From: Streptosporangium sp. NBC_01495
Lineage (GTDB): Bacteria > Actinomycetota > Actinomycetes > Streptosporangiales > Streptosporangiaceae
NCBI RefSeq assembly: GCF_036250735.1
Contig: NZ_CP109430.1
Span: 1,860,001 to 1,924,000, forward strand
Reading direction: 5' to 3'
Length of the DNA stretch: 64,000 nt
Of the stretch, positions 18,145 to 34,343 are shown in pieces; position 1 is the first letter of the stretch, and every line of letters starts with the position of its first letter. A program made the position numbers and the translations under genes. The notes under the pieces are model-generated. The model was not told where the DNA came from and did no database searches. It saw only the letters and a program-made list of their open reading frames with translations.

Positions 18145-20490
<2,346 letters not shown>

Positions 20491-20571
20491 ACGGCACGTT
20501 CACCGGGTAGCCGGGTAAGGGGACAGAGCGGGTACGGGTCGTCGTGCCCGCCCTCCCGCGTCCGGCCTCCC

Positions 20572-20770
20572 GCGAACCGTGGGCGAACGGGACGGGAAAC
20601 GGGACCGCGAGTTCTCTTCCCGGTCCGACGCGATCCGGCCCGGGTGGGAACGGATCGTGCGAGTCGCGGATGGACCGAACAGGAGGGCGGGATCATGCGA
20701 GCCGTGGGCGAACCGGACGGGAAGCGGGATCGTGCGGGTGGGTTCTCCTCCCGGTCCGACGCGATCCGGC
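20572..20770. repeat. Two ~70-bp direct repeats upstream of the PPOX gene
   Basis: A block running from GCGARCCGTGGGCGAACSGG to CCCGGTCCGACGCGATCCGG occurs at 20572-20641 and again at 20697-20770 with small differences. The second copy ends 14 nt before the start codon of the next gene, so it may contain its promoter. 20491-20783 otherwise holds no gene. Confidence 0.8.
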
Positions 20771-20783
20771 GAGGAACGCTCCG

Positions 20784-21200
20784 GTGAGGGACGACGAGGC
20801 CAGGCGGCGGATGGCGGGCGAACGCGTCGCACGGCTGGCCACGGTGAGCGGTGACGGGACACCGCATCTGGTGCCGGTCACGTTCGCCGTGGACGGCGAC
20901 CGGGTGATGACCGCCATCGACCACAAGCCGAAGACCACGACCGACCTGCGACGCCTGCGCGACATCCGGGAGAACGCCCGGGTGTGCGTCCTCGCCGATC
21001 ACTACGACGACGACTGGACCCGGCTGTGGTGGGTGCGCGCCGACGGCGAGGCGACCGTCCTGGACACCGGTGCCGTGCGGGCCGCGGCCATAACGGCGCT
21101 CGCCGGGAGATATTCCCAGTACCGGGAGCGCGCTCCCGAGGGGCCGGTGATCCTGATCGAGGTGACTCGCTGGTCCGGATGGTCGTACTCCGGGAACTGA
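20784..21200 (+). CDS. PPOX-class F420-dependent oxidoreductase (TIGR03668-like)
   Basis: 138 residues, split-barrel flavin/deazaflavin-binding fold. Landmarks: ERVARLATVSGDGTPHLVPV, VMTAIDHKPKTTTDLRRLRD, NARVCVLADHYDDDWTRLWW and the C-terminal ILIEVTRWSGWSYSGN, typical of the TIGR03668 subgroup that uses coenzyme F420. GTG 20784 follows GAGGAA. Likely cytoplasmic reductase; substrate unknown. F420 use agrees with the F420-type luciferase-like enzyme at 33423-34343. Confidence 0.88.
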   Translation: MRDDEARRRMAGERVARLATVSGDGTPHLVPVTFAVDGDRVMTAIDHKPKTTTDLRRLRDIRENARVCVLADHYDDDWTRLWWVRADGEATVLDTGAVRAAAITALAGRYSQYRERAPEGPVILIEVTRWSGWSYSGN

Positions 21201-21266
21201 CGGACGGTTCGCCCGCGCGAGGAGGGACGCGGCGACGGCGACGACCCTTGATCGCGCGGGGCCTCG

Positions 21267-21416
21267 CGAACCGGCGGTCACTTCTACGGCCGTACGGGGT
21301 CTCGTGAACCGCCGGTCACCTCGACGGCCGTACGAGGTCCATGAACCGGCGGTCACCTTCACGGCCATACGAGGTCCGTGAACCGGCGGTCACCTTCACG
21401 GCCGCTCGTCGGCGCC
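21267..21416. repeat. Four 37-39-bp tandem repeats overlapping the 3' end of the SARP regulator gene
   Basis: GAACCGGCGGTCAC begins units at 21267, 21306, 21343 and 21380; each continues with ACGGCCGTACGAGGTC or a close variant. The last unit includes the TGA stop (21396-21398) and final codons of the minus-strand regulator. Confidence 0.88.
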
Positions 21417-24400
21417 GCGCGGGCGCCGGGAGGCGTCGATGTTCGCCAGCAGCTCGAGGGCGCGGGCCTCGCCCGGCGCGTGGCCGGTCTCCCGGTGCAC
21501 CGCGAGGGCCTGCTCGGCGTCGCGTCCGGCCCGCTCGGTGTCGTGGCGTCCGTGGTGGGCGCGTGACCGCGCGGTCAGGGCCTGGCCCTCGTGCATCCGG
21601 TATCCGGCGCCGCGCGCGATGACCAGCGCCAGGTCGGCGTGCCGCAGGGCCGCGTCGTGCTCGCCGAGAGAGGTCGAGCGGGCCGCGAGCCCCAGCAGCG
21701 CCTTCATCTCGGGGTATCTGGTGCCCGCCGCGCGGGCCGTCCGCAGCGCCTCCTCCTGATGCCGCCCGGCGGCCACGAGGTCGCCGAGGTGCTGGTGAAC
21801 GGTGCCGAGCGTGTTGAGCGCGTCCGCCACCAGGCGCCGATGGCCGGTCTGCCACGACGCGTCCAGCGCCGTCCCGGCGAGGTCGAGCGCCTCCGCGAGC
21901 CGTCCGGCGTCGCGGTGGACCGCGGCGAGGTTGCGCATGGTGTCGGCCTCGTTCCCGCGGTTGCCCACCTGCCGGTGCAGCGCGAGCGCCGCGACGAGGT
22001 CCTCGCGGGCGGCGTCCAGCCGTCCCAGGGCGTGCTTCGCCTCGCCCAGCGCGGCGAGGTTGTTCGCCTCGCTGCCGCGGTGCCCGAGGCGGCGGCTCAT
22101 GGCCAGCGACGCCTCAAGGCAGTCGGCCGCCTCGCGCAGGCGGCCCATCTCGAGGTAGACGCAGCCCAGGTTGCCGAGGTTGACGTTCTGCCCGCCCTCG
22201 AGTCCCAGCTCGCGGTTGAGTTCGAGCGACAGCCGCAGGTCGTCGCTCGCCTGGGCCAGCATCCCGAGGTCGGCGTGGGTGGCGCCCAGGTTGCCGAGGA
22301 CGGCGATCTGGCCCTCGCGCCAGCCGCTGCGCCGGGCCAGCTCGAGGGCGAGCGTGTAGTACCGGAGGGCCTGGCGCTGCCGTCCCTGGAAACCGTGCAG
22401 GCCGGCCAGGCTGAGCCGCAGCATGGTCTGCGCCCTCAGATTCCCCGCGCTCTCGGCGGCGGCGAGCCCCGCCTCCACCACGGTCGCCCAGTCGACGGCG
22501 CTGTGGCGGAGGAAGAAGTATCCGCGAAGCGTGTCCGCGATGAGCCAGGCCAGCTCGTGCGGCCCGTGCGCGGCGGTGAACGTGACGGCCGCCACCAGGT
22601 TGGCCACCTCGCCGTCCAGCCAGGCGGACGCCGCCGCGTGGTCGTCGAAGCCGCCGGGCGACGGCGCGACCTCGGCGGGCGGCAGCTCCAGGCGCATGAA
22701 CTGCGGGTACAGCAGCCGGGCGGCGACATCCGAGGTGGCCAGGTAGTGCCGGTGCAGGCGGGTGAGCGCCGCCCGGCGCAGGTCCTCGGTCTCCTCGCTC
22801 TCCGCGTACTCCGCCGCGCACAGCCGCAGCAGGTCGTGCTGGGCGAACCGGCCGGGTGCCGGCTCGTCCACCAGATGCGCCGACGTCAGGACGCCCACCA
22901 GCCCGGCGGCCTCCGCCGGTGTGGTGTCCAGCAGCGCCGCCATCGCCGGCACGGTGGCGTCGGGCCCGGTGACGAGCCCGAGCAGCCGGAAGAGCCGCCG
23001 CGCCGGGACGGGCAGGACGGCGTACGACAGCTGGAAGGCGGCCCTGACCGCCGACTCGGGGTCACCGGGAACCTGGAGGGCGCTGAGCCTGTTGCCCTCG
23101 CGCAGTTCCCTGCCGTACTCCGCCAGCGTCCGGTGCCGGCTGCCGAGGAGGTTGGCGGCGGCGATCCGCAGGGCCAGCGGGAGGTGCCCGCAGAGCGTGG
23201 CGAGATCGAGCGCGGCCGAGGGTTCGGCGCGCAGCCGGGCGGAACCGAGCAGGCGGTTCAGGAGGGTGTGTGACTCCCGGGCGGTCAGCACGTCCAGGAC
23301 CACCCGGTGCGCCCCGTCGCGCGCGACGAGCCCGCCGAGGGCGTCCCTGCTGGTGATGACGGCGACCGAGCCGGTGTCTCCCGGCAGCAGCGGCCTGACC
23401 TGGTCGGGGCCTGCGGCGTTGTCCAGCAGGACGAGCACGCGCCTGCCCGACAGCAGGGTCCGGTAGAGCGCGGCGGCCTCCTCCTGGTCGGAGGGTACCT
23501 GGTCGGGCGGCACGCCCAGCGAGTGCAGGAACCGCGACAGCACGTCGATCGGGCGCAACGGGCCGTCGGCCGCGTACCCGCGCAGGTTCACGTGCAGCTG
23601 CCCGTCGGCGAACCGGTGCCGTACGCGGTGTGCCCAGTGCACCGCGAGGGCGGTCTTGCCGACCCCCGCCGTTCCCGTGATCACCGCGATCGTCGGATTC
23701 TCCTCGGATCTCCCCAGCAGCCTGTCCAGCTGCCGCAGCGGTGCCACGCGCCCCGCGAACGCGGGTACCGCGGCGGGCAGCTGGGCGGGAACCGCCACCG
23801 CCCCCGAGGACGGTGCCGCCTGCGGGGCGGCCGGGACGCCGAGGGGCGCCGACTGGCGGCGGCGAAGGATGTCCAGGTGCGCCGCGCGCAACTCGGTGCC
23901 CGGCTCGACGTTCAGCTCACCGGCGAGCCTGGCGCGGATGTCGGCGAACAGGCGCAGCGCCGCGACCTGCTCGCCGCAGCCCGCGAGCGCCGTCATGAGC
24001 CGGGCGGCGAGCCCCTCGTGCAGGGGTTCGTCGTTCACGAGCGGCCACAGTGACGCGGCGACGCGCCGGTGGTCGGCCTCACCGTCCGCGGCGTCGGCGT
24101 AGCCGAGCGCCGCCTCGACACGGCGACGGGACGCCGCCACCGCGGCGGGGTGGTCGCGGAGCGCGCCGGGCGACCCGGCCAGTACGGGGCCGCGCCAGCA
24201 TCCCAGCGCCTCGGCCAGCAGTTCCCGCGCCCCGGCGCGGTCTCCCGCGGTCCGCGCCCGTTCGGCCTCGGCGCGCAGCGCGTCGAACCTGCCGAGGTCG
24301 AGTCGCCCGTCGGCCACGTCGAGGACGTACCCGTCCGGAGTGCGGAGGATCGTCCGCGCCGCCTCCCCGGCCGCCCGCGAGGGCTCCAGCGAGCTCCGCA

Positions 24401-24914
24401 GCCGGCCGACGTAGACCTGGATCAGGTTGCCGCACGTCCGCGGCGGGTTGTGCTCCCACAGCACGTCGACGATCTCCCCGGTCGAGACGGGCTGCCCCGG
24501 CCGCAGCGCCAGGAGCCCGAGCAACGCGCGGGGCATGGCCGAACCGACCTCCAGCGCGGCGCCGCCCCGCCGCACCGACAGCGCGCCCAGCACGCCGATC
24601 CACAGGTCGTCCCCGCCGTCCGGGCCGTTCCCGCCGCCCGCGCGGTCCAGTGGGTCGCGGGCGGCCGGTTCCCGATCGGCGAGCTCGAAGGCGGCCAGCA
24701 GCCCGGCCCGCTCGGCGTCACGGATCGGCAGGGCGGCGACCAGACGCTCCAGGGAGGTGCGGTGCGGGCGGGCGACCCTGCCCCGCTCGATGTCGCGGAT
24801 CGTGCGGACGCTCACCCCCGCCCGGACCGCGAGGTCACGCTGACTCCATCCGGCGGCGGCCCGCCGGCTCCGAAGCGCCTCTCCCGCCGAAACCTGTACC
24901 GATCGTCTCTGCAT
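21396..24914 (-). CDS. SARP/AfsR-like regulator: HTH, BTAD, NB-ARC and TPR domains
   Basis: About 1172 residues. In order: an XRE-type helix-turn-helix (AGWSQRDLAVRAGVSVRTIR, residues 20-60), an OmpR-like winged helix and BTAD (about 100-360; LWIGVLGALSVRRGG, GNLIQVYVGRLRSSL), an NB-ARC/STAND ATPase (GTAGVGKTALAVHW Walker A; RRVLVLLDNA Walker B; about 400-640), and a long C-terminal TPR array. The extra N-terminal XRE domain is unusual for SARP proteins. Start uncertain: ATG 24914, or GTG 24938 with GGCGGAT upstream. It is divergent from the peptide operon at 25147-29175 and is its likely activator. The C-terminus ends inside a tandem repeat. Confidence 0.9.
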   Translation of the reverse strand: MQRRSVQVSAGEALRSRRAAAGWSQRDLAVRAGVSVRTIRDIERGRVARPHRTSLERLVAALPIRDAERAGLLAAFELADREPAARDPLDRAGGGNGPDGGDDLWIGVLGALSVRRGGAALEVGSAMPRALLGLLALRPGQPVSTGEIVDVLWEHNPPRTCGNLIQVYVGRLRSSLEPSRAAGEAARTILRTPDGYVLDVADGRLDLGRFDALRAEAERARTAGDRAGARELLAEALGCWRGPVLAGSPGALRDHPAAVAASRRRVEAALGYADAADGEADHRRVAASLWPLVNDEPLHEGLAARLMTALAGCGEQVAALRLFADIRARLAGELNVEPGTELRAAHLDILRRRQSAPLGVPAAPQAAPSSGAVAVPAQLPAAVPAFAGRVAPLRQLDRLLGRSEENPTIAVITGTAGVGKTALAVHWAHRVRHRFADGQLHVNLRGYAADGPLRPIDVLSRFLHSLGVPPDQVPSDQEEAAALYRTLLSGRRVLVLLDNAAGPDQVRPLLPGDTGSVAVITSRDALGGLVARDGAHRVVLDVLTARESHTLLNRLLGSARLRAEPSAALDLATLCGHLPLALRIAAANLLGSRHRTLAEYGRELREGNRLSALQVPGDPESAVRAAFQLSYAVLPVPARRLFRLLGLVTGPDATVPAMAALLDTTPAEAAGLVGVLTSAHLVDEPAPGRFAQHDLLRLCAAEYAESEETEDLRRAALTRLHRHYLATSDVAARLLYPQFMRLELPPAEVAPSPGGFDDHAAASAWLDGEVANLVAAVTFTAAHGPHELAWLIADTLRGYFFLRHSAVDWATVVEAGLAAAESAGNLRAQTMLRLSLAGLHGFQGRQRQALRYYTLALELARRSGWREGQIAVLGNLGATHADLGMLAQASDDLRLSLELNRELGLEGGQNVNLGNLGCVYLEMGRLREAADCLEASLAMSRRLGHRGSEANNLAALGEAKHALGRLDAAREDLVAALALHRQVGNRGNEADTMRNLAAVHRDAGRLAEALDLAGTALDASWQTGHRRLVADALNTLGTVHQHLGDLVAAGRHQEEALRTARAAGTRYPEMKALLGLAARSTSLGEHDAALRHADLALVIARGAGYRMHEGQALTARSRAHHGRHDTERAGRDAEQALAVHRETGHAPGEARALELLANIDASRRPRGADERP

Positions 24915-24938
24915 GACTGCGCGTCTCTCCCGTCGCAC

Positions 24939-25146
24939 ATCCGCCGATCACGCGTATTGCTGCCGGAGTTCCTGCCGGTTCTGCCGCTCGCCCACCCTCG
25001 CCCGCCCGCCCGGTGGCGGAGTACGGCCTGCTCGGCGTGGTGCCGGTCGGCTCGCGGATTTGTTAAGAATCTTTGCAGTAAAGCACACGGTGCCCCTCTC
25101 TAACGTCGTCGTCGAGGACAGCGGCTCGCACAGGCGGGAGAGAACC
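24939..25146. promoter_or_regulatory. Divergent control region of the SARP gene and the peptide operon
   Basis: An AT-rich island, TTGTTAAGAATCTTTGCAGT, at about 25059-25078 stands out from GC-rich flanks, about 70 nt before the operon's first start codon. It is the best candidate for the operon promoter. Clear SARP heptamer repeats were not recognised. Confidence 0.45.
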
Positions 25147-25713
25147 GTGGGGTATGTCGCGATCGCGTGCGGTGTCGTGCAGGCCGTCGTGTTCGTCGCC
25201 GCCGTGGCGGGCAAGGCGCGTGACGCGGAGGCGTTCCGCGCGTTCGCCCGCTCCCTGGTGGAGACGCGGCTGGTCACACCCCGATGGCGTACGGGCGTCG
25301 CCACCGGGGTGATCCTCGCGGAGGTGTCGGCGGTGCTGCTGCTCGCCACACCGGGCGCGGCGGCCCCCGGCTTCGCCGTCGCCGCCGCGCTCTGCGCGGT
25401 CCTCACCGGCGGGGTCGCGGCGACCCTCCTGCGCCGGGTGCGGGCGTCCTGCCTGTGCTTCGGCGCCCGGTCGAGTCCGATGGGGTGGCCCCACCTGGTC
25501 CGCAACGCGCTCCTGACGGCCGTCGCCGTCCTCGGTCACGCGGCCGTGACCGTGGCCGCGGTTCCGTCCGCGATCCGCGTGGAGGGCGCCGCGGTGGCCG
25601 TCCTCGCGGGGCTGGCCGGGGCGCTCCTGCTCATCCGGTTCGACGATCTCGTGCACATCTTCCAGCCGCCCGGCTCTCCGGCCGGCCCTCCAGACAGGAG
25701 CGTGCTCCGATGA
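25147..25713 (+). CDS. MauE/DoxX-like redox-associated membrane protein
   Basis: 188 residues with about four membrane helices (VAIACGVVQAVVFVAAVAGK; GVILAEVSAVLLLA; FAVAAALCAVLTGGVAATLL; AVAVLAGLAGALLLI). The family hallmark is a cytosol/exterior loop with CLCFGARSSPMGWPHLVRN. MauE is needed for maturation of the disulfide-rich methylamine dehydrogenase small subunit and is related to DoxX/VKOR-type quinone-linked redox proteins. GTG 25147 is preceded by GGGAG at 7-8 nt. First gene of an operon; its stop overlaps the next start by 4 nt. Role inferred: passing electrons from disulfide formation to the membrane. Confidence 0.85.
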   Translation: MGYVAIACGVVQAVVFVAAVAGKARDAEAFRAFARSLVETRLVTPRWRTGVATGVILAEVSAVLLLATPGAAAPGFAVAAALCAVLTGGVAATLLRRVRASCLCFGARSSPMGWPHLVRNALLTAVAVLGHAAVTVAAVPSAIRVEGAAVAVLAGLAGALLLIRFDDLVHIFQPPGSPAGPPDRSVLR

Positions 25714-26270
25714 CGTACCTCGTCGCCGCCGTCGTTCTCTGCTTGACGCTGACGGTGCTCAATCTCGTCGTGCTGCTGGGGGTCGTCGCGCGGCTGCGCC
25801 TCCTCGGCGCGGCCCGGCCCCCCGGGTACGGGCACAGTCACGGCCACGGGCACGGCCGCGGAGAGACGCCCGCACCGGTGCTGCCGCCCGGCGCCACACC
25901 GGCGGAGTTCACGGCGACCGCCCTCGACGGGGTGCCCGTCGACGGGCGAGGCGCCCGCCTGGTCGGATTCTTCACACCCCAGTGCTCGCTCTGCCACGAG
26001 CGGCTGCCGCAGGTGATCGAGTACGCCGAGCGCGGCGGGTTCCGGCGCGAGGACGTGTTGGCGGTGGTGATCGGCGATCCTGAGGAGACGAGCGAGCTCG
26101 CGGCCAGGCTCGGACCGGTGGCGCGCGTCGTCGTCGAGGAGATCGACGGCCCGGTGTACCGGGCGTTCGCGGTGAACGGCCTGCCCGCGATGTACCTGAT
26201 GGACGACCGGGGCGCGGTCCGCGCGTCGGGCACCGACCTGACCGGCTTCCCGGTCGTCACACCGGCGTGA
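25710..26270 (+). CDS. Membrane-anchored thioredoxin-like (TlpA/MauD-type) protein
   Basis: 186 residues. A single N-terminal helix (VAAVVLCLTLTVLNLVVLLG) anchors a thioredoxin-fold domain outside the cytoplasm. The redox-active motif is FFTPQCSLCHERLP (CSLC) and the cis-Pro loop is GLPAMYL. A His/Gly-rich stretch (GHSHGHGHGRG, about 40-50) could bind metal. ATG 25710 overlaps the MauE stop. Paired MauE and MauD-like proteins suggest disulfide formation or isomerisation of the cysteine-rich peptide encoded at the end of the operon. Its TGA overlaps the first possible start of the ABC gene, within a tandem repeat. Confidence 0.87.
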   Translation: MTYLVAAVVLCLTLTVLNLVVLLGVVARLRLLGAARPPGYGHSHGHGHGRGETPAPVLPPGATPAEFTATALDGVPVDGRGARLVGFFTPQCSLCHERLPQVIEYAERGGFRREDVLAVVIGDPEETSELAARLGPVARVVVEEIDGPVYRAFAVNGLPAMYLMDDRGAVRASGTDLTGFPVVTPA

Positions 26271-26518
26271 GCGCGGCCCAGGACCCGGCTCGGGGGAGTG
26301 GGGCGGCCCCGGTTCCGGACGGCGGTGGTGATCCGGTTCGGAGTATCGGCGTGAGTGCGGCCCAGGACCCGGCTCGGGGGAGTGGGGCGGCCCCGGTTCC
26401 GGACGGCGGTGGTGATCCGGTTCGGAGTATCGGCGTGAGTGCGGCCCAGGACCCGGCTCGGGGGAGTGGGGCGGCCACGGCTCCGGGCAGCGGTGGTGAT
26501 CCGGTTCGGAGGAGCGGC
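26267..26518. repeat. Three 84-bp tandem repeats spanning the thioredoxin/ABC gene junction
   Basis: Units begin at GTG 26267, 26351 and 26435; a fourth GTG at 26519 begins non-repeated sequence. Each carries GGCGTGAGYGCGGCCCAGGA and ends GGTTCGGAGKAKCGGC. 84 is divisible by three, so the ABC frame stays open and gains 28-residue repeats. Confidence 0.93.
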
Positions 26519-28435
26519 GTGAGCCGGTCCACGGGTGGAACCCCGAGCCCGCCTCCGGGCGACGGGAACCCGGTCCAGGGCGCCGGCGGGGGCGCGGGCA
26601 CCAACCCGGCCCCGGGGGTGCGCGCCGGACTCGGGCACGCGCGCCGGGCGGCGGCGCTGGCCTGGACGAGCGGTCGCGGGCACGTGGTGGGGCAGGTCGT
26701 GCTCGCCTGCGCCGCGGGACTGGTGCCCGTCCTGACGGCCTGGTTCACCAAACTCGTCCTGGACGGGCTGACCGGTCCCGGCGCCACGGTCTCCGCGCTG
26801 CTCCCGTACGCGGTCGCCCTGCTGGTGCTGGGGGCGCTGGCCGGAACCGTGCCGCACCTGGCGGGCTACGCCGAGGCGGAGCTGGAGCGCCGGGTGAACC
26901 TGGTGGCCAGGGACCGCCTCTACACGGCCGTCAACCGGCTGCCCGGCCTCGTACGGCTGGAGAACCCGGGCTTCCAGGACAGGCTGCACCTCGCCGAGCA
27001 GGCGAGCCGGTCGGGTCCCGGACGGCTGGTGACGAGCGCTCTCGGTCTCGCGCAGGCGGGCATCGTGATCGGCGGGTTTCTCGCGACCCTCACGACGGTG
27101 AGCCCCGTCGCCGCGGGCCTGGTCCTGCTGGCCGTGGTGCCACTCGTCCGCGTGCATCTCGACCTGAGCCGGGAGCAGGCCGCCATGCTCTGGAGCACCG
27201 GCCACGGCCAGCGCCGCGAGCTGTTCTTCGCCCGGCTGCTGAGCATGCCGCACGCGGCCAAGGAGGTGCGTCTCTTCGGCCTCGGTGACTTCTTTCGCGA
27301 CCGCATGCTGGCGGAGCTGCGCGCGGTCAGCGCCGAGCAGCGCCGCGTCGGGCTGCGCCAGCTGCGCGGCCAGGGCACGCTCGCCCTGCTGGCGGCGGCG
27401 ATCGCGGGCGCCGGGCTGGTGTGGATCATCGGCGAGGCGGTGGCTGGACGGGCCACGGTGGGGGATCTCTCCGTGTTCGTGGCGGCCGTCGCCGGAACGC
27501 AGGGCGCGCTGGCCGCCGGGGTGCGGCGCCTCGCCGCGGCACACCAGTCGCTGCTGCTGTTCGACCACTACGAGGCGGTACGCGGGGCCGAGCCGGACCT
27601 GCCGCTGCCGTCCCGCCCGATGGCCACCTCCGCCCTCGGCCACGGCGTCGAGCTGCGGGACGTCTGGTTCCGCTACGGGCCCGAGCAGCCGTGGATCCTG
27701 CGCGGAGTCACCCTGTCCATCCCGTTCGGGCGGTCGCTCGCGGTCGTCGGCCTCAACGGGGCGGGCAAGAGCACCCTGGTCAAGCTCCTGTGCCGCTTCC
27801 ACGACCCCGAGCGGGGATCCATCCTGTGGGACGGCGTCGACCTGCGTGACCTGGACCCGGCAGCGCTGCGCGAGTGCGTCGGGGCCGTGTTCCAGGACTT
27901 CGGCGAGTACGACCTGAGCGTCGCGGAGAACATCGCCGTCGGGGACCTCTCCGCGCTCGGCGACCGCCCGCGTGTCGAGGCGGCGGCCGTCCGGGCGGGT
28001 GCGGACGCGATGATCCGCCGGCTGCCGCACGGGTACGACACGTTGCTGACCAAGGTGTTCTTCCGCGGCTCCACCGGCGACGAGGAGCAGGCCGGGGTGA
28101 CCCTGTCCGGCGGGCAGTGGCAGCGGGTGGCCCTGGCCCGCGCCCTGCTGCGGGACCGGTGCGACCTCATGATCCTCGACGAGCCCAGCTCGGGGCTCGA
28201 CCCGCACGCCGAGCACGAGGTGCACACCATCCTGCGCGAGCACCGGACCGGCCGGACCACACTGCTGATCTCGCATCGGCTGAGCGCCGTCCGCGACGCG
28301 GACGTGATCGCCGTCCTCGCCGACGGGCGGATCGCGGAACTCGGCGGCCACGACGAGCTGGTACGCGCGGGCGGCCGGTACGCGGAGCTCTTCGAGATCC
28401 AGGCGCGCGGGTACGCCACGGCGGTCGCCCCGTGA
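26267..28435 (+). CDS. ABC exporter (TMD-NBD half transporter) with repetitive N-terminus
   Basis: Up to 722 residues. Transmembrane domain about residues 135-430; nucleotide-binding domain about 460-715 with Walker A GLNGAGKSTLVKLL, signature LSGGQWQRVALARALL, Walker B CDLMILDEPSSGLD and H-loop LLISHRLSAV. Type IV exporter half, expected to dimerise. It lacks an N-terminal C39 peptidase domain, so leader removal must be done by another protein, plausibly the S26 peptidase just downstream. The first ~84 residues are three 28-residue repeats (MSAAQDPARGSGAAPVPDGG...) and three further in-frame GTG codons (26351, 26435, 26519) are alternative starts. Proposed cargo: the peptide encoded at 28996. 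Confidence 0.9.
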   Translation: MSAAQDPARGSGAAPVPDGGGDPVRSIGVSAAQDPARGSGAAPVPDGGGDPVRSIGVSAAQDPARGSGAATAPGSGGDPVRRSGVSRSTGGTPSPPPGDGNPVQGAGGGAGTNPAPGVRAGLGHARRAAALAWTSGRGHVVGQVVLACAAGLVPVLTAWFTKLVLDGLTGPGATVSALLPYAVALLVLGALAGTVPHLAGYAEAELERRVNLVARDRLYTAVNRLPGLVRLENPGFQDRLHLAEQASRSGPGRLVTSALGLAQAGIVIGGFLATLTTVSPVAAGLVLLAVVPLVRVHLDLSREQAAMLWSTGHGQRRELFFARLLSMPHAAKEVRLFGLGDFFRDRMLAELRAVSAEQRRVGLRQLRGQGTLALLAAAIAGAGLVWIIGEAVAGRATVGDLSVFVAAVAGTQGALAAGVRRLAAAHQSLLLFDHYEAVRGAEPDLPLPSRPMATSALGHGVELRDVWFRYGPEQPWILRGVTLSIPFGRSLAVVGLNGAGKSTLVKLLCRFHDPERGSILWDGVDLRDLDPAALRECVGAVFQDFGEYDLSVAENIAVGDLSALGDRPRVEAAAVRAGADAMIRRLPHGYDTLLTKVFFRGSTGDEEQAGVTLSGGQWQRVALARALLRDRCDLMILDEPSSGLDPHAEHEVHTILREHRTGRTTLLISHRLSAVRDADVIAVLADGRIAELGGHDELVRAGGRYAELFEIQARGYATAVAP

Positions 28436-28517
28436 CCGCGCCTTCCTCGGCGGGACCGCTGTGGCGTACCCGTGCGGGCGGAGGGCGTCCGGTGGCCGCG
28501 TTTCCTGGGGGTGCCGG

Positions 28518-28976
28518 GTGACCGCGCTCGTGCCGGGGGTGTGCGCGGCGGCCCTCCTCGTGCTCGTTCTGGTTTTGCTGGTGCTGCGGCGGCACTTTCT
28601 CACGGTCACCGTCAGCGGCCGGAGCATGGAACCCACGCTGCGCGACGGCGATCGCGTCCTGGTGCGCAGGGCGGGCATCCGCGCGGTGCGCGCCGGAGCG
28701 CTCGCGGTGATGGCCGCGCCCGCCGAGATGGGGCGGGACTGGATGGTCAAGCGGGTGGTCGCGGTGCCCGGCGACCCGGTGCCGCACCGGGAGGTCCCGG
28801 CCCTGTCCGCCACCCGTGACCGCGTCGTACCCGCCGATCGCCTCGTCGTCGTCGGTGACAACCTCGCGATCAGCCTCGACTCGCGCAGGTTCGGCTACGT
28901 ACACGCCCGGCAACTGCTCGGCGTGGTCGTCCGCCACCTGCCACCGTCTCCGAGCCGGCACCTCGCCGGCCGGTGA
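28518..28976 (+). CDS. S26-family signal peptidase
   Basis: 152 residues with one N-terminal membrane helix (ALLVLVLVLLVL). The catalytic serine block is SGRSMEPTLRDGDRVLVRR and the general-base lysine block is DWMVKRVVAVPGDPV; the closing VVVGDNLAISLDSRRFGYV is the usual box E. GTG 28518 has GGGGG upstream; the frame opens earlier at 28461. It lies between the exporter and the cysteine-rich peptide and is shorter than housekeeping LepB, consistent with a dedicated processing peptidase cutting at the Ala-Gly-Ala site of that peptide. Confidence 0.9.
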   Translation: MTALVPGVCAAALLVLVLVLLVLRRHFLTVTVSGRSMEPTLRDGDRVLVRRAGIRAVRAGALAVMAAPAEMGRDWMVKRVVAVPGDPVPHREVPALSATRDRVVPADRLVVVGDNLAISLDSRRFGYVHARQLLGVVVRHLPPSPSRHLAGR

Positions 28977-28995
28977 GTGAAAAGGGAGAACAGCA

Positions 28996-29175
28996 ATGAT
29001 CAAGTTCGCGCAGCGGGCCGGAGAGCGGCTCCTCACCCACCTTCTGCCCAGCACCACCGCCGGGGCGATCTGCATTCCCCAGACCTACTGCAGCCACTGC
29101 GGGGGCGGCTGGTACAAGCGTCACTGGATCTTCGCCGACTGCTCCTCCGACTACACCGCCTGCGGAGACTGCTGA
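28996..29175 (+). CDS. Cysteine-rich 59-residue peptide precursor, probable secreted disulfide-rich product
   Basis: Small open frame, ATG 28996 preceded by AAGGGAG. Residues 1-24 form an amphipathic, positively charged leader (MIKFAQRAGERLLTHLLPST then TAGA). Cleavage after Ala-Gly-Ala at residue 24 would release a 35-residue core starting ICIPQTYC, with six cysteines at 26, 32, 35, 49, 56 and 59, two tryptophans (39, 44) and a GGGWYKRHW turn. The end is YTACGDC. Six cysteines plus MauE- and MauD-like redox partners imply three disulfides formed outside the cytoplasm. Last gene of the operon, 19 nt after the signal peptidase. I know short actinomycete proteins with a similar LLxPxTTAxA leader but no established function. 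Confidence 0.85.
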   Translation: MIKFAQRAGERLLTHLLPSTTAGAICIPQTYCSHCGGGWYKRHWIFADCSSDYTACGDC

Positions 29176-29200
29176 CGGAACGCGGGAAGCGGGATACCGG

Positions 29201-29229
29201 GGGCTGGGCGGCGGTGAGCCGTCCAGCCC
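29201..29229 (+). terminator. Terminator hairpin of the peptide operon
   Basis: GGGCTGGGCGGC (29201-29212) pairs with GCCGTCCAGCCC (29218-29229), a 12-bp stem including one G-U pair, with loop GGTGA. It lies 25 nt after the peptide stop codon. Confidence 0.75.
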
Positions 29230-29491
29230 TTCCCGGCGTGTTCCCGCGGGCCACGTGAGCGGGCTCCGGCGCGGGACGCGCGCCACGGTCTCCGAGGAGG
29301 TCGTCGCGCTCGCGGCGCCGACCGGATTCGGAACGAGCCAACAAAGGCGCCGCGCTGCCGTAGCGCGAGGTGTGGTTAACAGTATAGAAATACGACACAT
29401 CTTCGTTTAAGGCTTGACGTAAGCCCGGCGGCGAGAGCGCTCTCTCGACATCCCGGTGACGTCACGCCGCCCGTTCTCGATAGGCAGGTCG

Positions 29492-30719
29492 ATGAGAACA
29501 GCTCGTGACCAGGATGTACGCGCGACCTCGCGCGCACGCAGAGGCATCTCCTTAGCCCGTCTCCTCGCGCTGGCCGCCTCCATTGGACCAACGATGTCTG
29601 GAACCAGGTGTTCTCCGGCGTGGTGGGCGCTCCTCCGCAGGGCTTCCCGAACCCGCCCTACACGACGCTGCCCACCAGCCCCGTGACGCGGGAGAAGCCC
29701 TTCCTGTACATCGACGACACGGGCGCCTACCGGGTCTTCGTCCCGGCCCTGCGCCACAACACCTCGGGCACGACCTGGTCCGACGGCCGGCAGCAGCAGG
29801 GATCGTCGCTGCCGATCCGCGACTTCTTCATCGCGAAGCCGACCGACAGCGCGTCCAGGATCAACCAGCAGCTGTCGCGCGGCAAGCACCTCCTGCTCAC
29901 CCCGGGCGTCTACCACCTCGACCGGGCGCTGCGCGTCAAGCACAAGAACACGGTCGTGCTCGGCCTGGGCATGCCGAGCCTGGCCCCCGACACCGGCGAC
30001 GCGGCACTGCGGATCGAGGACGTCGACGGCGTCCGGATCGCGGGCGTGCTCGTCGACGCCGGGCGCCGCGAGTCCGAGACGCTCGTCGAGGTCGGCGACC
30101 GCCACAGCCACCGGGACCACTCCAGGAACCCGATCTCGCTGCAGGACGTCTTCTTCCGCATCGGCGGACCCTGGGTGGGCAAGGCGAAGACGAGTCTCGT
30201 GATCAACAGCGACGACACGCTCATCGACAACATCTGGGCATGGCGCGGGGACCACGGCAACGGGATCGGCTGGACGCAGAACACGGCCGACACGGGCGTC
30301 GTGGTCAACGGCGACGACGTGACGGCGTACGGCCTGTTCGTCGAGCACTACCAGAAGTACCAGACGATCTGGAACGGCGAGAGAGGCCGGACGATCTTCT
30401 ACCAGAGCGAGATCCCCTACGACCCGCCGAGCCAGGCCGCCTGGAACAGCCCGACCGGTAAGGGCTGGGCCTCCTACAAGGTCGACCGCAGGGTGCGGAA
30501 CCACGAGGCGTGGGGCATGGGCGTCTACTCCTACTTCAACCAGGGCGTGGACATCCGCGCGGACCGCGGGATCGAGGTCCCGAAGACGCCGGGGCCAAGT
30601 TCCACAACATGGTGACGGTCTTCCTCGACAGCAGCGGCGGCATCGAACGGACGATCAACGACGTGGGCACCCCCGTCGTCGGGTCGTACGGGACGAGCAA
30701 CGTCGTCAGCTACCCCTGA
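29492..30719 (+). pseudogene. Decayed secreted beta-helix-type protein gene (internal deletion and frameshift)
   Basis: ATG 29492 starts a plausible signal region (RRGISLARLLALAASI) in one frame; after about 29585 the family homology continues in another frame with NDVWNQVFSGVVGAPPQGFP. That frame then carries EKPFLYIDDTGAYRVFVPAL, LLLTPGVYHLDRALRVKHKN and YGLFVEHYQKYQTIWNGE, matching a conserved actinomycete secreted family that is sometimes labelled adenylyl cyclase without basis. Full-length members have about 200 more residues before this point, so an internal deletion is likely. Near 30591, a run of four G (one short) shifts the frame; the proper ending KFHNMVTVFLDSSGGI...VVSYP continues in the other frame to 30719. 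The frameshift could be a sequencing error; the deletion is harder to explain that way. Confidence 0.8.
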
Positions 30720-30746
30720 CCTGACCTGACCCGTTCCAGGAACGCG

Positions 30747-30780
30747 GTGCGCCGGCCCGGAGTCCTCCGGGCCGGCGCAC
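30747..30780. terminator. Bidirectional terminator between convergent genes
   Basis: GTGCGCCGGCCCGGA (30747-30761) pairs perfectly with TCCGGGCCGGCGCAC (30766-30780): 15-bp stem, 4-nt loop, between the ends of the pseudogene and the membrane-protein gene. Confidence 0.9.
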
Positions 30781-30781
30781 G

Positions 30782-31117
30782 TCATCTCTCCTGCGTGGGG
30801 GACACGTCCTTCCGCGGCCCGCGCAGCAGGAACCACAGGAGCGAGGCCTGGACCAGCCCGGCGACGGTGAGCAGCAGCAGGTGCGTGCCGTCGGGAACGG
30901 CCTCCCCGGGGATCATCATCACCAGCCACGAGAGCGGCAGGGTCACCAGGATCAACATGACCGCCGACAGGCCCTGGTTCTCCGGTCGGCGCATGCCGAC
31001 CAAGACGACGACGAGGCCGGCGATGACGAGCAGGACGTAGAGGCTGCTGACGACGAAGGCGAGGGTGCCCCGCCTGTACCGGGACACCGGGCGGAACACA
31101 CTGCGAATTGATGCCAT
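30782..31117 (-). CDS. Small membrane protein resembling the SCO4225 family
   Basis: 111 residues with three to four hydrophobic helices: LAFVVSSLYVLLVIAGLVVV, LSAVMLILVTLPLSWLVMMI and LLLLTVAGLVQASLLWFLL. The central LPLSWLVMMIPGEAV and the closing LVQASLLWFLLRG resemble small streptomycete membrane proteins of the SCO4225 type. The start ATG 31117 precedes a basic N-terminus (MASIRSVFRPVSRYRRG). Function unknown. Confidence 0.75.
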   Translation of the reverse strand: MASIRSVFRPVSRYRRGTLAFVVSSLYVLLVIAGLVVVLVGMRRPENQGLSAVMLILVTLPLSWLVMMIPGEAVPDGTHLLLLTVAGLVQASLLWFLLRGPRKDVSPTQER

Positions 31118-31394
31118 GACTTTGACTCTGCCCCAGGATCGCCATCGAGACCTCGGGACGAATACCTGACCTGTCCCGGTACGGATACTCAGCGCCGACG
31201 GAGCGGGCGTTGCCTGTTCCTCGCGTACCGGCTGTGGCCGCGGAAGTAGCCCGGATCGCCTCGGCGGGGCGTACGGGGCGGGGGCCTTTTGCAGGATCAC
31301 GGAAATACTTGGGGGAACGCCTGATTCCGGCGGCATGAAAGTCCTTCGGGCCCAGCGGGTAGGGGGCCGTCCCGGCTCCAGAACGGCTGATCGC
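31118..31394. other. Intergenic region, nothing recognised
   Basis: Upstream of the small membrane protein and downstream of the next minus-strand gene. AT-richer stretches near 31300-31335 could hold a promoter. No hairpin or gene supported. Confidence 0.4.
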
Positions 31395-31829
31395 TCAGCC
31401 CAGAAGCTCCGGAGGCGGCGGGGGAGTCATGACGCGGACAAATCCCAGCCTCGCGCTGGGCGGCATCGCCCGATGGTTCACCCCGTCAGTGATGGAGTCG
31501 CATCCGCCCAGTTCCGCACGCAGACGGATCTCGCCGACGCCTTCCTGCCTGATGAGCCAGAGTTCCCAGAACGTGGGCGCGGGGCACCGTCTGGTCCCGT
31601 TCGGTGCCCCGCTTTTCCTGATCTCCGCTATGAGGATGTGCGCGACATGACCGGAAACCACGCGGGAGCCCACCAGCGTGGCCTGCTCCATGCCCGTGTG
31701 CGTGTGGTAGGCGCAGGCTCTGACAACGGCCGGTGCGCCGGTGAGATCCAGCAAGGTTCGCTCTGGATTGTCCGGTAAGGCGAGCGTCGGGGGACAGTCG
31801 TACGGCTCCCCGGTCAACGAGTGCGACAT
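31395..31829 (-). CDS. Hypothetical protein
   Basis: About 144 residues from ATG 31829 (MSHSLTGEPYDCPPTLALPD). Protein-like stretches include TLLDLTGAPAVVRACAYHTH, VAHILIAEIRKSG and CPAPTFWELWLIRQEGVGEI. A proline-rich end (TPPPPPELLG) closes it. No domain recognised, and GC skew at third positions is weaker than in neighbours, which could mean recent acquisition or a false gene. The frame extends to 31976 but that part is not convincing. Confidence 0.45.
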   Translation of the reverse strand: MSHSLTGEPYDCPPTLALPDNPERTLLDLTGAPAVVRACAYHTHTGMEQATLVGSRVVSGHVAHILIAEIRKSGAPNGTRRCPAPTFWELWLIRQEGVGEIRLRAELGGCDSITDGVNHRAMPPSARLGFVRVMTPPPPPELLG

Positions 31830-32039
31830 GGTCACGTCCAGCTGTGTACGGGTCCGGAAGTGGACGTAAGCATCTGACGAACCGTGACTTCTGTCCATGC
31901 TCGGCCGGGCACGCGGGGTGGCCGGTCGTCCTCGGGCGGATCGTAGGGAGGCCGCGTCGGAAAACCGGGCGCTCACCCGTTCAGGTCCTCCTGGGACGGC
32001 ATGTACAGGACCCGAGGCGCCTTCGATCAGGTCCGGGTA

Positions 32040-32327
32040 TCAGCGCTGGTCAGGGTCGCTCCGCCACGTCTCGAATTGGAGGGCGGGTGAATCCGCGGAT
32101 TCCTGGAACTGCTTCGCCCTGTTCACGCAGTCGGGGCAGATGGGTTCCTCAACCGATCTGGCCGTCGCCTCCGGTGTCGGCTCGCGGAGGCCGCCCAACA
32201 CCGTCATGCCGGGAGGAAGAGCGGTCTCGGGATCGATCGTGATCGTCGTGACGCTCGCGGGGATGAAACCGAAGGTGCGCTTGCATACGTAGCATCTGCC
32301 GATTGTCGTAATCTGCTCATCTGCCAT
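32040..32327 (-). CDS. Small CxxC-CxxC putative zinc-ribbon protein
   Basis: 95 residues. Two cysteine knuckles, GRCYVCKRTFGF (about 10-13) and EPICPDCVNRAKQ (about 68-71), are spaced as in zinc ribbons. Between them lies TITIDPETALPPGM. A conserved actinomycete protein of this shape exists but its role is unknown. ATG 32327 lies about 10 nt after AGGAGG; the upstream frame contains only short SDRESM-type repeats and looks non-coding. Confidence 0.75.
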   Translation of the reverse strand: MADEQITTIGRCYVCKRTFGFIPASVTTITIDPETALPPGMTVLGGLREPTPEATARSVEEPICPDCVNRAKQFQESADSPALQFETWRSDPDQR

Positions 32328-32466
32328 ATGGCGTCTGTCCTCCTCCACAGCACCGTACATCCTGGCCGGTTTCCTCAGATGTGACGCCGCCTCTCGTGCG
32401 CGTGCAGGCGGTCGACAGAGATCGCTTGACGGCGGGTGAACTCCGCGCGGACGCGCACGACCTCTC

Positions 32467-32520
32467 CTGTCACTCATGGACTCCCTGTCACTCATGGACT
32501 CCCTGTCACTCGTGGGCTCC
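32467..32520. repeat. Three 18-bp tandem repeats
   Basis: CTGTCACTCATGGACTCC at 32467 and 32485, then CTGTCACTCGTGGGCTCC at 32503. Located in the divergent region between the zinc-ribbon gene and the methyltransferase gene. Confidence 0.9.
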
Positions 32521-32614
32521 GGTATCGCACGGGTGATCACCCCGGAGGCTCGTCGTTTCCGGGTGCTTCCTGATCGGGCGCTGTTCGTGTTCCCCGGGGG
32601 GTTATGGTGATCCG

Positions 32615-33256
32615 ATGTCGGACTTTTCCCCGCGGGACACGCGGTTGCGCCGTTACTGGGACCGGCAGGCCGACTCCTACGACCGGCGGATGGCGCTGGC
32701 CGAGCACCGCTTCTTCGCCGACACCCGTCCCTGGCTGTGTGGGCAGGCGGTCGGCGACGTGCTGGAGGTGGCGGTCGGCACCGGTCTGAACCTCGCCCAC
32801 TACCCCGACGACGTGCGGCTCACCGGTGTGGAGTGGAGCGCCTCGATGCTGGCGATGGCCCGGCGTCGAGCTGGCGACCTCGGCCGGACGGTCGATCTGC
32901 GGCAGGACGACGCGCGGGCGCTGAGCTTCGCCGACGGGCGTTTCGACACGGTCGTGTGCACGTTCGCGATGTGCGGGTTCCCCGACGAGCGGGTGGTGCT
33001 CGCCGAGATGTCACGGGTCCTGCGGCCGGGCGGGTTGTTGCTCCTGGCCGACCACGTGGCGTCGTCGGCCTGGCCGGTCCGGGTGCTGCAGGGGCTGGTG
33101 GACGCGGTCACCGTACCGCTGTCCGGGGAGCACTACCGCCGCCGGCCGGTGCGCCGGGTGCGCGCGATGGGATTCACCGTCGAGCGTCACGAGCGCTTCA
33201 AGCTCGGAGTCATCGAGCGGTTCGCGGCCAGAAAACCCGGCGGCGCCGACGTCTGA
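32615..33256 (+). CDS. Class I SAM-dependent methyltransferase
   Basis: 213 residues. Rossmann-fold landmarks: motif I DVLEVAVGTGLNLAHYPDDV, motif II LTGVEWSASMLAMARRRA, motif III RQDDARALSFADGRFDTVVC, and LRPGGLLLLADHV. Overall closest to the UbiE/phosphatidylethanolamine-type small methyltransferases (DRQADSYDRRMALAEHRFF opening). ATG 32615 chosen; Shine-Dalgarno GGGGGG is distant. The last codon and stop lie in the first unit of a 24-bp tandem repeat. Substrate unknown. Confidence 0.88.
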   Translation: MSDFSPRDTRLRRYWDRQADSYDRRMALAEHRFFADTRPWLCGQAVGDVLEVAVGTGLNLAHYPDDVRLTGVEWSASMLAMARRRAGDLGRTVDLRQDDARALSFADGRFDTVVCTFAMCGFPDERVVLAEMSRVLRPGGLLLLADHVASSAWPVRVLQGLVDAVTVPLSGEHYRRRPVRRVRAMGFTVERHERFKLGVIERFAARKPGGADV

Positions 33257-33370
33257 TCGCGAGCGGCCGGTGACGTCTGACGGTGAGTGGCCGGTGGGCT
33301 CTGACCATGGGTGACCGGTGGGGCCTGATCGTGAGTGACCGGTGGGGTCTGACCGCGAGTGACCCGTGGG
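33251..33370. repeat. Five 24-bp tandem repeats starting at a stop codon
   Basis: Units at 33251, 33275, 33299, 33323 and 33347 with consensus GTCTGAYCGTGAGTGACCGG followed by TGGG. The first unit provides the final Val codon and TGA of the methyltransferase gene. Confidence 0.93.
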
Positions 33371-33422
33371 GTCCAGGCGCGAGACCCTTCTCCACGGCAC
33401 CGGCGTCCGGCCGGCCCGCTCG

Positions 33423-34343
33423 TCAGCGGATGAGAACCGGGGCGAGCGACCGGAGGGTGTCCAGACACCCCTGCACATTGTCGGCCAGAGGCTGGACGCA
33501 CACGTGGTCGGCTCCGGCCTCGTGGTGAGCGCGGACCCGCTCGGAGATCGTCTCGGGGTCACCCCAGCAGACGATCGCGTCGACGAGAGCGTCGCTGCCG
33601 CCGTCGACGAGATCGGCGTCGGGCCAGCCGAGCGTGCGCAGATGGTTCAGATAGTTGGGCAGCTTCAGGTAGAACGCCATGTAGTCCCGGGCGATCGTCC
33701 GGGCCCGGTCGGCGTCGGTCTCCAGGACCACCGCCTGCTCGGGAACGAGCAACAGGTCGGGGCCGATGGTCTCCCGGGCCATGGCGGTGTGCTCGGGGGT
33801 GACGAAGTAGGTGTGCGCGCCGTGAGAGCGCTCGGCGGCCATTCGCAGCATCTTCGTCCGCAGCGCGGCGAGTACCCGGGCCGGCGGCTCGGGCAGGGGC
33901 GCGTCGTAGGGCGCCCGGTCCATGGCGTCGAGGTACGCGCGCATGGTCTCGGTAGGTCGCCCGTACTCATGTCCGCGGATGGTGACCAGCGGGGCGTGGC
34001 TCACGCCGAGGCCGAGGACGAAGCGACCCGACGACATCTCGGCCAGGGCGTTCGCCCCGGCGACCGCGGCGGCCGCGTCCCGCCCGTAGATGTTGGCGAT
34101 ACCGGTGGCGACCATGAGCTTCCGGGTGCCGGAGAGCAGGATCGCGGAGTTGACCAGGGACTCCTTGCCGCCGGGAACCTCGGCGATCCAGAGAGCCCCG
34201 TAACCGAGATCCTCGATGGCCGCGGCGACCCCGCGGCTCGTGGCGGCCGATTCCCCGCCCAGGAGCGAGAGCCACACGCCGACCTTGCCCAGGCGCTGCT
34301 TGAGTATGGGCAGGTCGACCACTGGGATACGTCGCTTCTGCAT
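33423..34343 (-). CDS. LLM-class F420-dependent oxidoreductase (TIGR03620-like)
   Basis: 306 residues, luciferase-like TIM barrel using coenzyme F420. Visible features: LGKVGVWLSLLGGESAATSR, AAAIEDLGYGALWIAEVPGG, VATGIANIYGRDAAAAVAGA, RFVLGLGVSHAPLVTIRGHE and the closing GADHVCVQPLADNV, typical of TIGR03620. ATG 34343 has GGAAAGG upstream. Likely cytoplasmic redox enzyme in secondary or xenobiotic metabolism; substrate unknown. Monocistronic. Confidence 0.9.
   Translation of the reverse strand: MQKRRIPVVDLPILKQRLGKVGVWLSLLGGESAATSRGVAAAIEDLGYGALWIAEVPGGKESLVNSAILLSGTRKLMVATGIANIYGRDAAAAVAGANALAEMSSGRFVLGLGVSHAPLVTIRGHEYGRPTETMRAYLDAMDRAPYDAPLPEPPARVLAALRTKMLRMAAERSHGAHTYFVTPEHTAMARETIGPDLLLVPEQAVVLETDADRARTIARDYMAFYLKLPNYLNHLRTLGWPDADLVDGGSDALVDAIVCWGDPETISERVRAHHEAGADHVCVQPLADNVQGCLDTLRSLAPVLIR

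What the first reader, a model, noticed from the sequence alone, without database searches (positions are those of the whole stretch)
25147..29175. Operon for a secreted six-cysteine peptide with its own redox, export and processing genes
Five tightly spaced genes encode a MauE-like membrane redox protein, a membrane-anchored CSLC thioredoxin-like protein, an ABC exporter lacking a C39 peptidase domain, an S26 signal peptidase and a 59-residue peptide with an LLPSTTAGA leader and a 35-residue, six-cysteine core. The gene order suggests translocation, leader cleavage after Ala-Gly-Ala and oxidative folding outside the cytoplasm. Seen: motifs, order, overlaps. Known: MauE and MauD are needed for maturation of a disulfide-rich subunit. 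Inferred: peptide function (antimicrobial, signal or structural).
Basis: partly seen in the sequence, partly recalled or inferred. Interest (0 to 1): 0.93.

Follow-up and report, generated by a model that had tools for sequence, protein, structure and literature searches.

The report
Disulfide-rich peptide with maturation cassette
Actinomycete bacteria carry a four-gene cassette that probably exports, trims and oxidatively folds small cysteine-rich peptides sharing one leader but having very different mature parts, and the window holds one such cassette with its peptide.

Summary
In detail: window 25147-29175 holds a MauE protein, an anchored CxxC TlpA/MauD-like protein, an ABC exporter without C39 domain, an S26 peptidase and a 59-residue precursor with six core cysteines. 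A leader profile found 148 precursors (143 distinct) at 130 loci, 140 of the 147 outside the window near three or four cassette genes, and in 27 of 29 genera among 80 named loci. Leaders are alike (Pro at -7, Ala-x-Ala at the inferred boundary); cores are unrelated apart from cysteine. Cysteine number is even in 76 of 78 core clusters; cores evolve faster than leaders. The leader has no hydrophobic signal core. Best mechanism: export by the ABC protein, cleavage by S26, disulfide formation by TlpA/MauE; no step is shown by experiment. A SARP-type regulator is near in nearly half of the loci, suggesting a specialised metabolite. decRiPPter (PMC7794033) already flagged mauE-containing candidate RiPP families in Streptomyces; the common leader, the S26 link and the class-wide spread are additions that I did not find in print within the searches named.

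The parts
25147..25713 (+). MauE-like (PF07291) polytopic membrane redox protein, CxCFG motif
   Evidence: Pfam E 4.4e-22; C102, C104, F105, G106 invariant in 13 aligned cassette MauE proteins
25710..26270 (+). Membrane-anchored TlpA/MauD-like thioredoxin-fold protein, CSLC motif
   Evidence: weak MauD/TlpA-type matches; C92, C95, R28, R30 invariant in 13 aligned relatives; one N-terminal hydrophobic segment
26267..28435 (+). ABC exporter (membrane and ATPase parts in one chain), no C39 domain; true start may lie downstream of the repeat-built first part
   Evidence: 47-56% identity to 19 cassette relatives
28518..28976 (+). S26 (type I) signal peptidase, one N-terminal hydrophobic segment, Ser36/Lys78
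   Evidence: Pfam E 2.3e-23; S36 invariant, K78 nearly invariant in 14 aligned relatives
28996..29175 (+). Precursor peptide, 59 aa: leader residues 1-24 (28996-29067), core residues 25-59 (29068-29172) with six cysteines; boundary inferred
   Evidence: leader profile 22.6 bits against a control maximum of 11.2
21396..24938 (-). Divergent SARP-type regulator (HTH, Trans_reg_C, BTAD, NB-ARC, TPR); probable pathway regulator (inferred)
   Evidence: Pfam BTAD E 5.5e-27; similar protein within 6 kb of the ABC gene in 33 of 73 and 32 of 65 loci

Best explanation
The operon makes a ribosomal, leader-guided, disulfide-bonded secreted peptide. The 59-residue precursor has a 24-residue leader that is not a Sec signal. 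The leader is recognised by the ABC exporter, which moves the reduced precursor across the membrane. The membrane-anchored S26 peptidase, active site outside, cuts after Ala-x-Ala and frees a 35-residue core. The anchored TlpA-like protein, recycled by MauE, forms or shuffles three disulfides. The divergent SARP-type protein probably controls expression. The product is probably a specialised metabolite that acts on other cells (antimicrobial or competitor-directed), since cores diversify fast while the leader and machine are kept. Shown by sequence: the genes, their linkage, leader conservation, even cysteine numbers, missing signal core, difference in selection. Inferred: each step of transport, cleavage and folding, and the function.
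For: Linkage: of 76 neighbourhoods L031-L106 (16 chosen by precursor hits, 60 by TlpA hits), 61 have MauE, TlpA, ABC and S26 together, 13 have three of the four, one has two, one none. Second set: of 80 loci fetched with the ABC alignment alone, 62 hold a precursor at 12 bits or more by a leader profile trained on the first set; the reversed-sequence control peaks at 11.7 bits; 5 of these 70 precursors had a core already in the first set. Disulfides: even cysteine number in 76 of 78 core clusters, 47 of 47 in the second set; in that set CxxC in 73 of 74 TlpA hits, CxCFG in 55 of 58 MauE hits, Ser and Lys motifs in 66 of 73 S26 hits. Leader/core: 42% against 21% identity outside shared cysteines, shuffled cores 20%; pooled dN/dS 0.29 against 0.64 over 42 pairs with no precursor used twice. 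Cleavage: Pro at -7 in 96% of 53 representatives; Ala-x-Ala/Ser at the boundary in 143 of 148, but the boundary was sought with that motif in mind. S26 link: loci with S26 within 5 kb of ABC have a 12-bit precursor in 112 of 124, those without in 6 of 14 (Fisher p 8e-5, relatedness not modelled); three loci with MauE and thioredoxin-part hits in one open frame and no S26 match have Cys-rich ORFs whose N-terminal part lacks Ala-x-Ala before the first cysteine. Export: best 11-residue hydropathy of 148 leaders is at most 1.75, median 0.96. Regulation: SARP-type protein in 33 of 73 loci, about 0.05 expected per locus from 45 BTAD matches in the window's 11.1-Mb genome.
Against: No experiment. I saw no gene that looks like a dedicated immunity gene among the neighbour clusters, though that scan covered only ORFs of 110 residues or more, in long second-set loci plus the window, and was judged by eye. 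Some loci without a nearby S26 keep Ala-x-Ala (L117, L126); at some loci with ABC and redox genes I found no convincing precursor (L073, L166). One locus has two 7-cysteine precursors (L039). TlpA-like proteins are often reductants (recalled), so the redox direction is open. The structure model of the precursor is too weak to use (mean pLDDT 60.8, pTM 0.31).
Confidence: 0.75

Rival explanations
1. The peptide leaves by Sec or Tat and is cut by a general signal peptidase; the cassette S26 and ABC serve something else.
For: The inferred boundary obeys the -3/-1 rule of ordinary signal peptidases; a few loci keep Ala-x-Ala without a nearby S26 (L117, L126).
Against: None of 148 leaders reaches a mean hydropathy of 1.8 over 11 residues (threshold mine; maximum 1.75), and 146 of 148 have a charge at -16 to -10. 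ABC, S26 and precursor occur together at 112 loci of the 138 tabulated.
Confidence: 0.1
2. The cysteines bind a metal or cofactor, or become thioethers, and the redox pair keeps them reduced.
For: TlpA and MauD relatives include reductants (recalled); even cysteine numbers also suit paired ligands.
Against: Cores show no similarity beyond cysteine and cysteine numbers run from 4 to 12. I recognised no cyclase-like or radical-SAM-like gene among the neighbour clusters found at five or more loci, but these were read by eye, not scanned against families.
Confidence: 0.1
3. The peptide is a signal, developmental or envelope component rather than a weapon.
For: No immunity gene recognised (limits above); broad but patchy spread in actinomycetes (34 of 393 class genomes).
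Against: Fast, near-unrelated cores, several cassettes per genome (three TlpA hits in G000, six in G165), carriage on plasmid records of the exporter gene and SARP linkage suit a specialised metabolite better.
Confidence: 0.3

Closest known systems
mauE/mauD-containing candidate RiPP families of decRiPPter (Kloosterman et al. 2020, PMC7794033; section 7 read in full, other passages)
   Same: mauE homologue (three families, one also with mauD), a small Cys-rich predicted precursor, a disulfide role suggested; the strict filter asked for a transporter, a peptidase and a regulator
   Different: Reported for Streptomyces only, precursors with at least 8 Cys; in what I read no shared leader, no S26/Ala-x-Ala step and no experiment on these families. 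Whether their clusters are this cassette was not tested (supplements were not available).
Actifensin and relatives (Actinomyces defensin-like bacteriocins, PMC6989792; passages seen)
   Same: 37-residue six-Cys secreted peptide with three disulfides, cut from a 32-residue leader, ABC genes nearby, variable homologues
   Different: In the passages seen its locus has ABC genes, a subtilisin-like protease, a LuxR-type regulator and unknown genes, no MauE or S26; different cysteine spacing and leader
TMcin of Staphylococcus (PMC13252029, preprint; passages seen)
   Same: ABC transporter, leader protease and disulfide catalyst (DsbA-type) dedicated to one bacteriocin
   Different: Leader removed by an intramembrane S2P-type metalloprotease; one disulfide; transmembrane peptide; other phylum
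Methylamine dehydrogenase maturation by MauE and MauD (recalled; summarised in PMC7794033)
   Same: MauE and a MauD-type protein linked to a disulfide-rich secreted polypeptide
   Different: Substrate is an enzyme subunit; no ABC/S26 partner recalled; other mau genes were not searched for here
C39-type (PCAT) bacteriocin exporters (recalled; mentioned in PMC13252029)
   Same: Export and leader removal linked to one exporter
   Different: Here the proposed protease is a separate S26 protein and the exporter has no C39 match

Membership tests
RiPP (ribosomal peptide with leader, modification and proteolysis) | Genetically encoded precursor with conserved leader and variable core | tested here: met
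   42% leader against 21% core identity, shuffled cores 20%
RiPP (ribosomal peptide with leader, modification and proteolysis) | Post-translational modification and leader removal occur | not testable with these tools
   Only indirect: even cysteine numbers, redox and protease genes beside the precursor
decRiPPter mauE candidate families | mauE homologue beside a small Cys-rich precursor | tested here: met
   PF07291 E 4.4e-22 in an operon with a six-Cys precursor
decRiPPter mauE candidate families | Precursor with at least 8 cysteines | tested here: not met
   Window precursor has 6; 8 to 12 in 67 of 148 family members
Sec-type secreted peptide | N-terminal signal with hydrophobic core | tested here: not met
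   No 19-residue window above 1.6 in the precursor; 0 of 148 leaders reach mean hydropathy 1.8 over 11 residues, maximum 1.75; simple hydropathy only, no signal-peptide predictor was run
S26 type I signal peptidase | Catalytic Ser and Lys, membrane anchor | tested here: met
   S36 invariant, K78 nearly invariant in 14 sequences; one hydrophobic N-terminal segment
PCAT / C39 bacteriocin exporter | C39 peptidase domain on the exporter | tested here: not met
   No C39 match in Pfam scans of the window exporter
Actifensin-type C6 defensin | C-X5-12-C-X3-C-X9-10-C-X4-5-C-X-C (as printed in PMC6989792) | tested here: not met
   Window spacing is C-x5-C-x2-C-x13-C-x6-C-x2-C
Known protein families for the precursor | Match to a Pfam or NCBIfam model, or to PDB sequences by profile | tested here: not met
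   0 of 54 scanned precursors match at E 0.01; 0 PDB sequences at E up to 1

The most novel reading that the evidence does not exclude
This is a large class of bacterial disulfide-rich peptides in which one Sec-independent machine (ABC exporter, S26 leader peptidase, TlpA/MauE folding pair) accepts almost any cysteine-rich core behind a fixed leader, giving actinomycetes a fast-evolving arsenal comparable to animal venom or plant defensin families. The S26 enzyme would then be a dedicated leader peptidase for ABC-exported substrates rather than a Sec signal peptidase.
Probability: 0.5. Interest if true: 0.88.

Novelty: new variant of a known kind. Interest (0 to 1): 0.76.

Why it matters
It gives a simple rule (leader motif plus cassette) that here found 148 Cys-rich precursors; the 54 tested match no Pfam or NCBIfam model. 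If the machine tolerates such varied cores, the leader could be a handle for making disulfide-rich peptides in bacteria. It also makes a testable case for a signal-peptidase-type enzyme working downstream of an ABC exporter, and for MauE with a TlpA-like protein as a folding pair in Gram-positive bacteria. Streptomyces clavuligerus plasmid pSCL4 carries a copy with two precursors listed as hypothetical proteins, so a well-known antibiotic producer can be used for the test.

Tried and rejected
PF07291 across the class matches 211 of 393 genomes and ranks other MauE proteins first, so it was not used to find cassettes; the TlpA alignment was far more specific (34 of 393). The precursor alone finds only close kin with confidence (2 of 16 genomes in the genus); in the family search at E up to 1 234 of 341 genomes had some match, mostly weak and unchecked. 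I fetched 16 neighbourhoods chosen among the better hits.

A phylum-wide sample gave 2 of 396 genomes, the window's own and one of the same class, so I make no claim outside Actinomycetes. Phage records: no match of the exporter at E 1e-60. Rfam: nothing at gathering scores in 20000-34000.

The AlphaFold2 model of the precursor (14-row alignment) has mean pLDDT 60.8 and pTM 0.31; no fold search was run on it. The second structure job was not used.

Two '5-cysteine' counts seem to come from my own trimming of the leader end; with another boundary rule one search gives none. A recalled lead to fulvocin C gave nothing useful in the listing; no family model matched the precursors.

Literature. Exact words MauE and RiPPs meet in three papers, of which only PMC7794033 fits by title. 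I did not open other listed papers, among them PMC13192320 and PMC6429109 (each holds a word beginning MauE) and PMC12668002 (holds DoxX and RiPP). The library holds open-licence papers only, so absence from print is not shown.

Results against the reading: 18 of 80 second-set loci had no precursor at 12 bits. Searches show likely sub-threshold precursors in nine (L108, L109, L112, L136, L150, L159, L167, L182, L183); five were set aside as near contig ends (L145, L148, L152, L155, L185); four have none that I found (L119, L166, L175, L186). In the first set 9 of 76 loci had none at 12 bits (L040, L052, L069, L073, L087, L090, L104-L106). Seven of the 147 precursors outside the window have fewer than three cassette genes within 6 kb. 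For the S26 test 11 loci near contig ends and 7 without an ABC hit over 300 bits were dropped; four loci counted as 'no S26 within 5 kb' (L070, L093, L139, L149) do have an S26 match further away, so the p value is only a guide. Of the 12 loci with S26 but no 12-bit precursor, 11 have a weaker candidate. Relatedness between loci was not modelled in any p value.

Full report
What is there. MauE and TlpA overlap by ATGA, TlpA and ABC by GTGA, ABC and S26 are 82 bases apart, S26 and precursor 19 bases. The precursor is MIKFAQRAGERLLTHLLPSTTAGA|ICIPQTYCSHCGGGWYKRHWIFADCSSDYTACGDC (bar = inferred cut). Domain assignments are; neither library matched the precursor.

Conservation. A search with the precursor in 341 family genomes gave close kin (76, 65 and 56% identity) and weak full-length hits with another core. 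Of sixteen neighbourhoods chosen from these, 11 hold all four other genes, three more hold three (L034, L036, L041), one has broken pieces (L040) and one has no convincing cassette (L043); all four are present even beside hits with E of 0.01 to 0.02 (L046, L042). The TlpA alignment then found 64 places in 34 of 393 class genomes; 60 fetched regions cover 62 of the 64 places. Over all 76 neighbourhoods 61 have MauE, TlpA, ABC and S26 within 5.5 kb of TlpA, 13 have three, one two, one none; TlpA is there by construction in the 60. The window's own genome has three cassettes (L068 and L093 are the other two), each with a different precursor.

The precursor family. A 22-column leader profile built from 70 pattern-chosen leaders scores most family members from about 15 to 39 bits; the same loci read backwards reach 11.2. 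There 62 of 80 loci hold a precursor at 12 bits or more against a control maximum of 11.7, in 27 of 29 genera, among them Streptomyces, Nonomuraea, Micromonospora, Amycolatopsis, Nocardia, Actinoplanes, Pseudonocardia and Nocardiopsis. Together the sets give 148 precursors, 143 distinct, at 130 loci; of the 147 outside the window 116 have four and 24 have three cassette genes within 6 kb.

Leader and core. In 53 core-cluster representatives Ala is at -3 in all, Ala or Ser at -1 in all, Pro at -7 in 96%, Asp at -15 in 81%, Arg at -14 in 77%. Part of this is by construction, because the boundary was set with an Ala-x-Ala rule; with the rule the boundary motif is present in 143 of 148. Cores share little beyond cysteine: 21% identity against 20% for shuffled cores. 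Among 42 close pairs, no precursor used twice, pooled dN/dS is 0.29 for leaders and 0.64 for non-Cys core positions, so these evolve as genes and cores change faster. In the pair window/G006 the core has more non-synonymous than synonymous change per site (0.27 against 0.15).

Disulfides. Over 148 precursors the core has 4 (6), 6 (73), 7 (2), 8 (54), 10 (12) or 12 (1) cysteines; clustered at 50% identity, 76 of 78 are even. Parity was not used in finding them, though the seed choice asked for at least 4 Cys. The two odd ones lie at one locus (L039).

Cleavage and export. Leaders lack a strong hydrophobic core (median best 11-residue hydropathy 0.96, maximum 1.75), so a Sec signal is unlikely; no dedicated predictor was run. 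S26 nearby goes with a leader-type precursor: 112 of 124 loci against 6 of 14 (with the limits told in Tried and rejected). Three loci with MauE and thioredoxin-part hits in one open frame and no S26 match (L104-L106) have Cys-rich ORFs with another kind of leader, without Ala-x-Ala before the first cysteine. This fits S26 as the leader protease but is correlation.

Gene order. The commonest orders are precursor-MauE-TlpA-ABC-S26 (40 precursors) and MauE-TlpA-ABC-S26-precursor, the window's order (17); 131 of 142 precursors examined are on the ABC strand.

Regulation and spread. A protein similar to the window's SARP-type regulator lies within 6 kb of ABC in 33 of 73 and 32 of 65 loci; the window's genome has 45 BTAD matches in 11.1 Mb, about 0.05 per such interval. 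The two measures differ in method, so the enrichment is approximate. Twenty-nine plasmid records (26 Streptomyces, 2 Embleya, 1 Nonomuraea) hold a related ABC gene; of these I looked at two. On pSCL4 of S. clavuligerus two precursors, annotated as hypothetical proteins, precede MauE, a hypothetical protein in TlpA position, ABC and S26; SNP1 of S. nigrescens has one precursor.

Known or new. decRiPPter reported three candidate families with mauE, one also with mauD, in Streptomyces, with precursors of at least 8 Cys, and suggested a part in modifying the precursor, with disulfides in mind (PMC7794033). That is the closest prior work that I found. The conserved leader, S26 link, parity, core diversity and class-wide spread were not in what I read. 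Pfam and NCBIfam match none of 54 precursors. I therefore call it a new variant of a known kind (RiPP-like secreted peptides), not a new kind.

Noticed in passing
window 26263-26523: An 84-bp unit repeated 3.1 times (96% matches) spans the TlpA end and the ABC start, giving the ABC protein a repetitive N-terminus or several alternative starts.
   Followed up: partly
L068 and L093 (own genome, about 5.32 and 5.60 Mb): Two more cassettes, with an eight- and a six-cysteine precursor, in the window's genome.
   Followed up: yes
L104-L106: MauE and thioredoxin-part matches in one open frame, no S26 match, and upstream Cys-rich ORFs whose leader lacks Ala-x-Ala; perhaps a sister system with another leader protease.
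   Followed up: partly
L087 7553-7657: A 34-residue Cys-rich ORF with no recognisable leader between TlpA and ABC in a congener of the window, at a locus with no S26 match.
   Followed up: no
L040: A cassette copy whose MauE and ABC matches lie in several frames, with a precursor-like ORF still readable; looks like a decaying copy.
   Followed up: no
window 29456-30615: Downstream ORFs suggest a protein whose start may lie in another frame than its body (read by eye); no Pfam match for the body.
   Followed up: no
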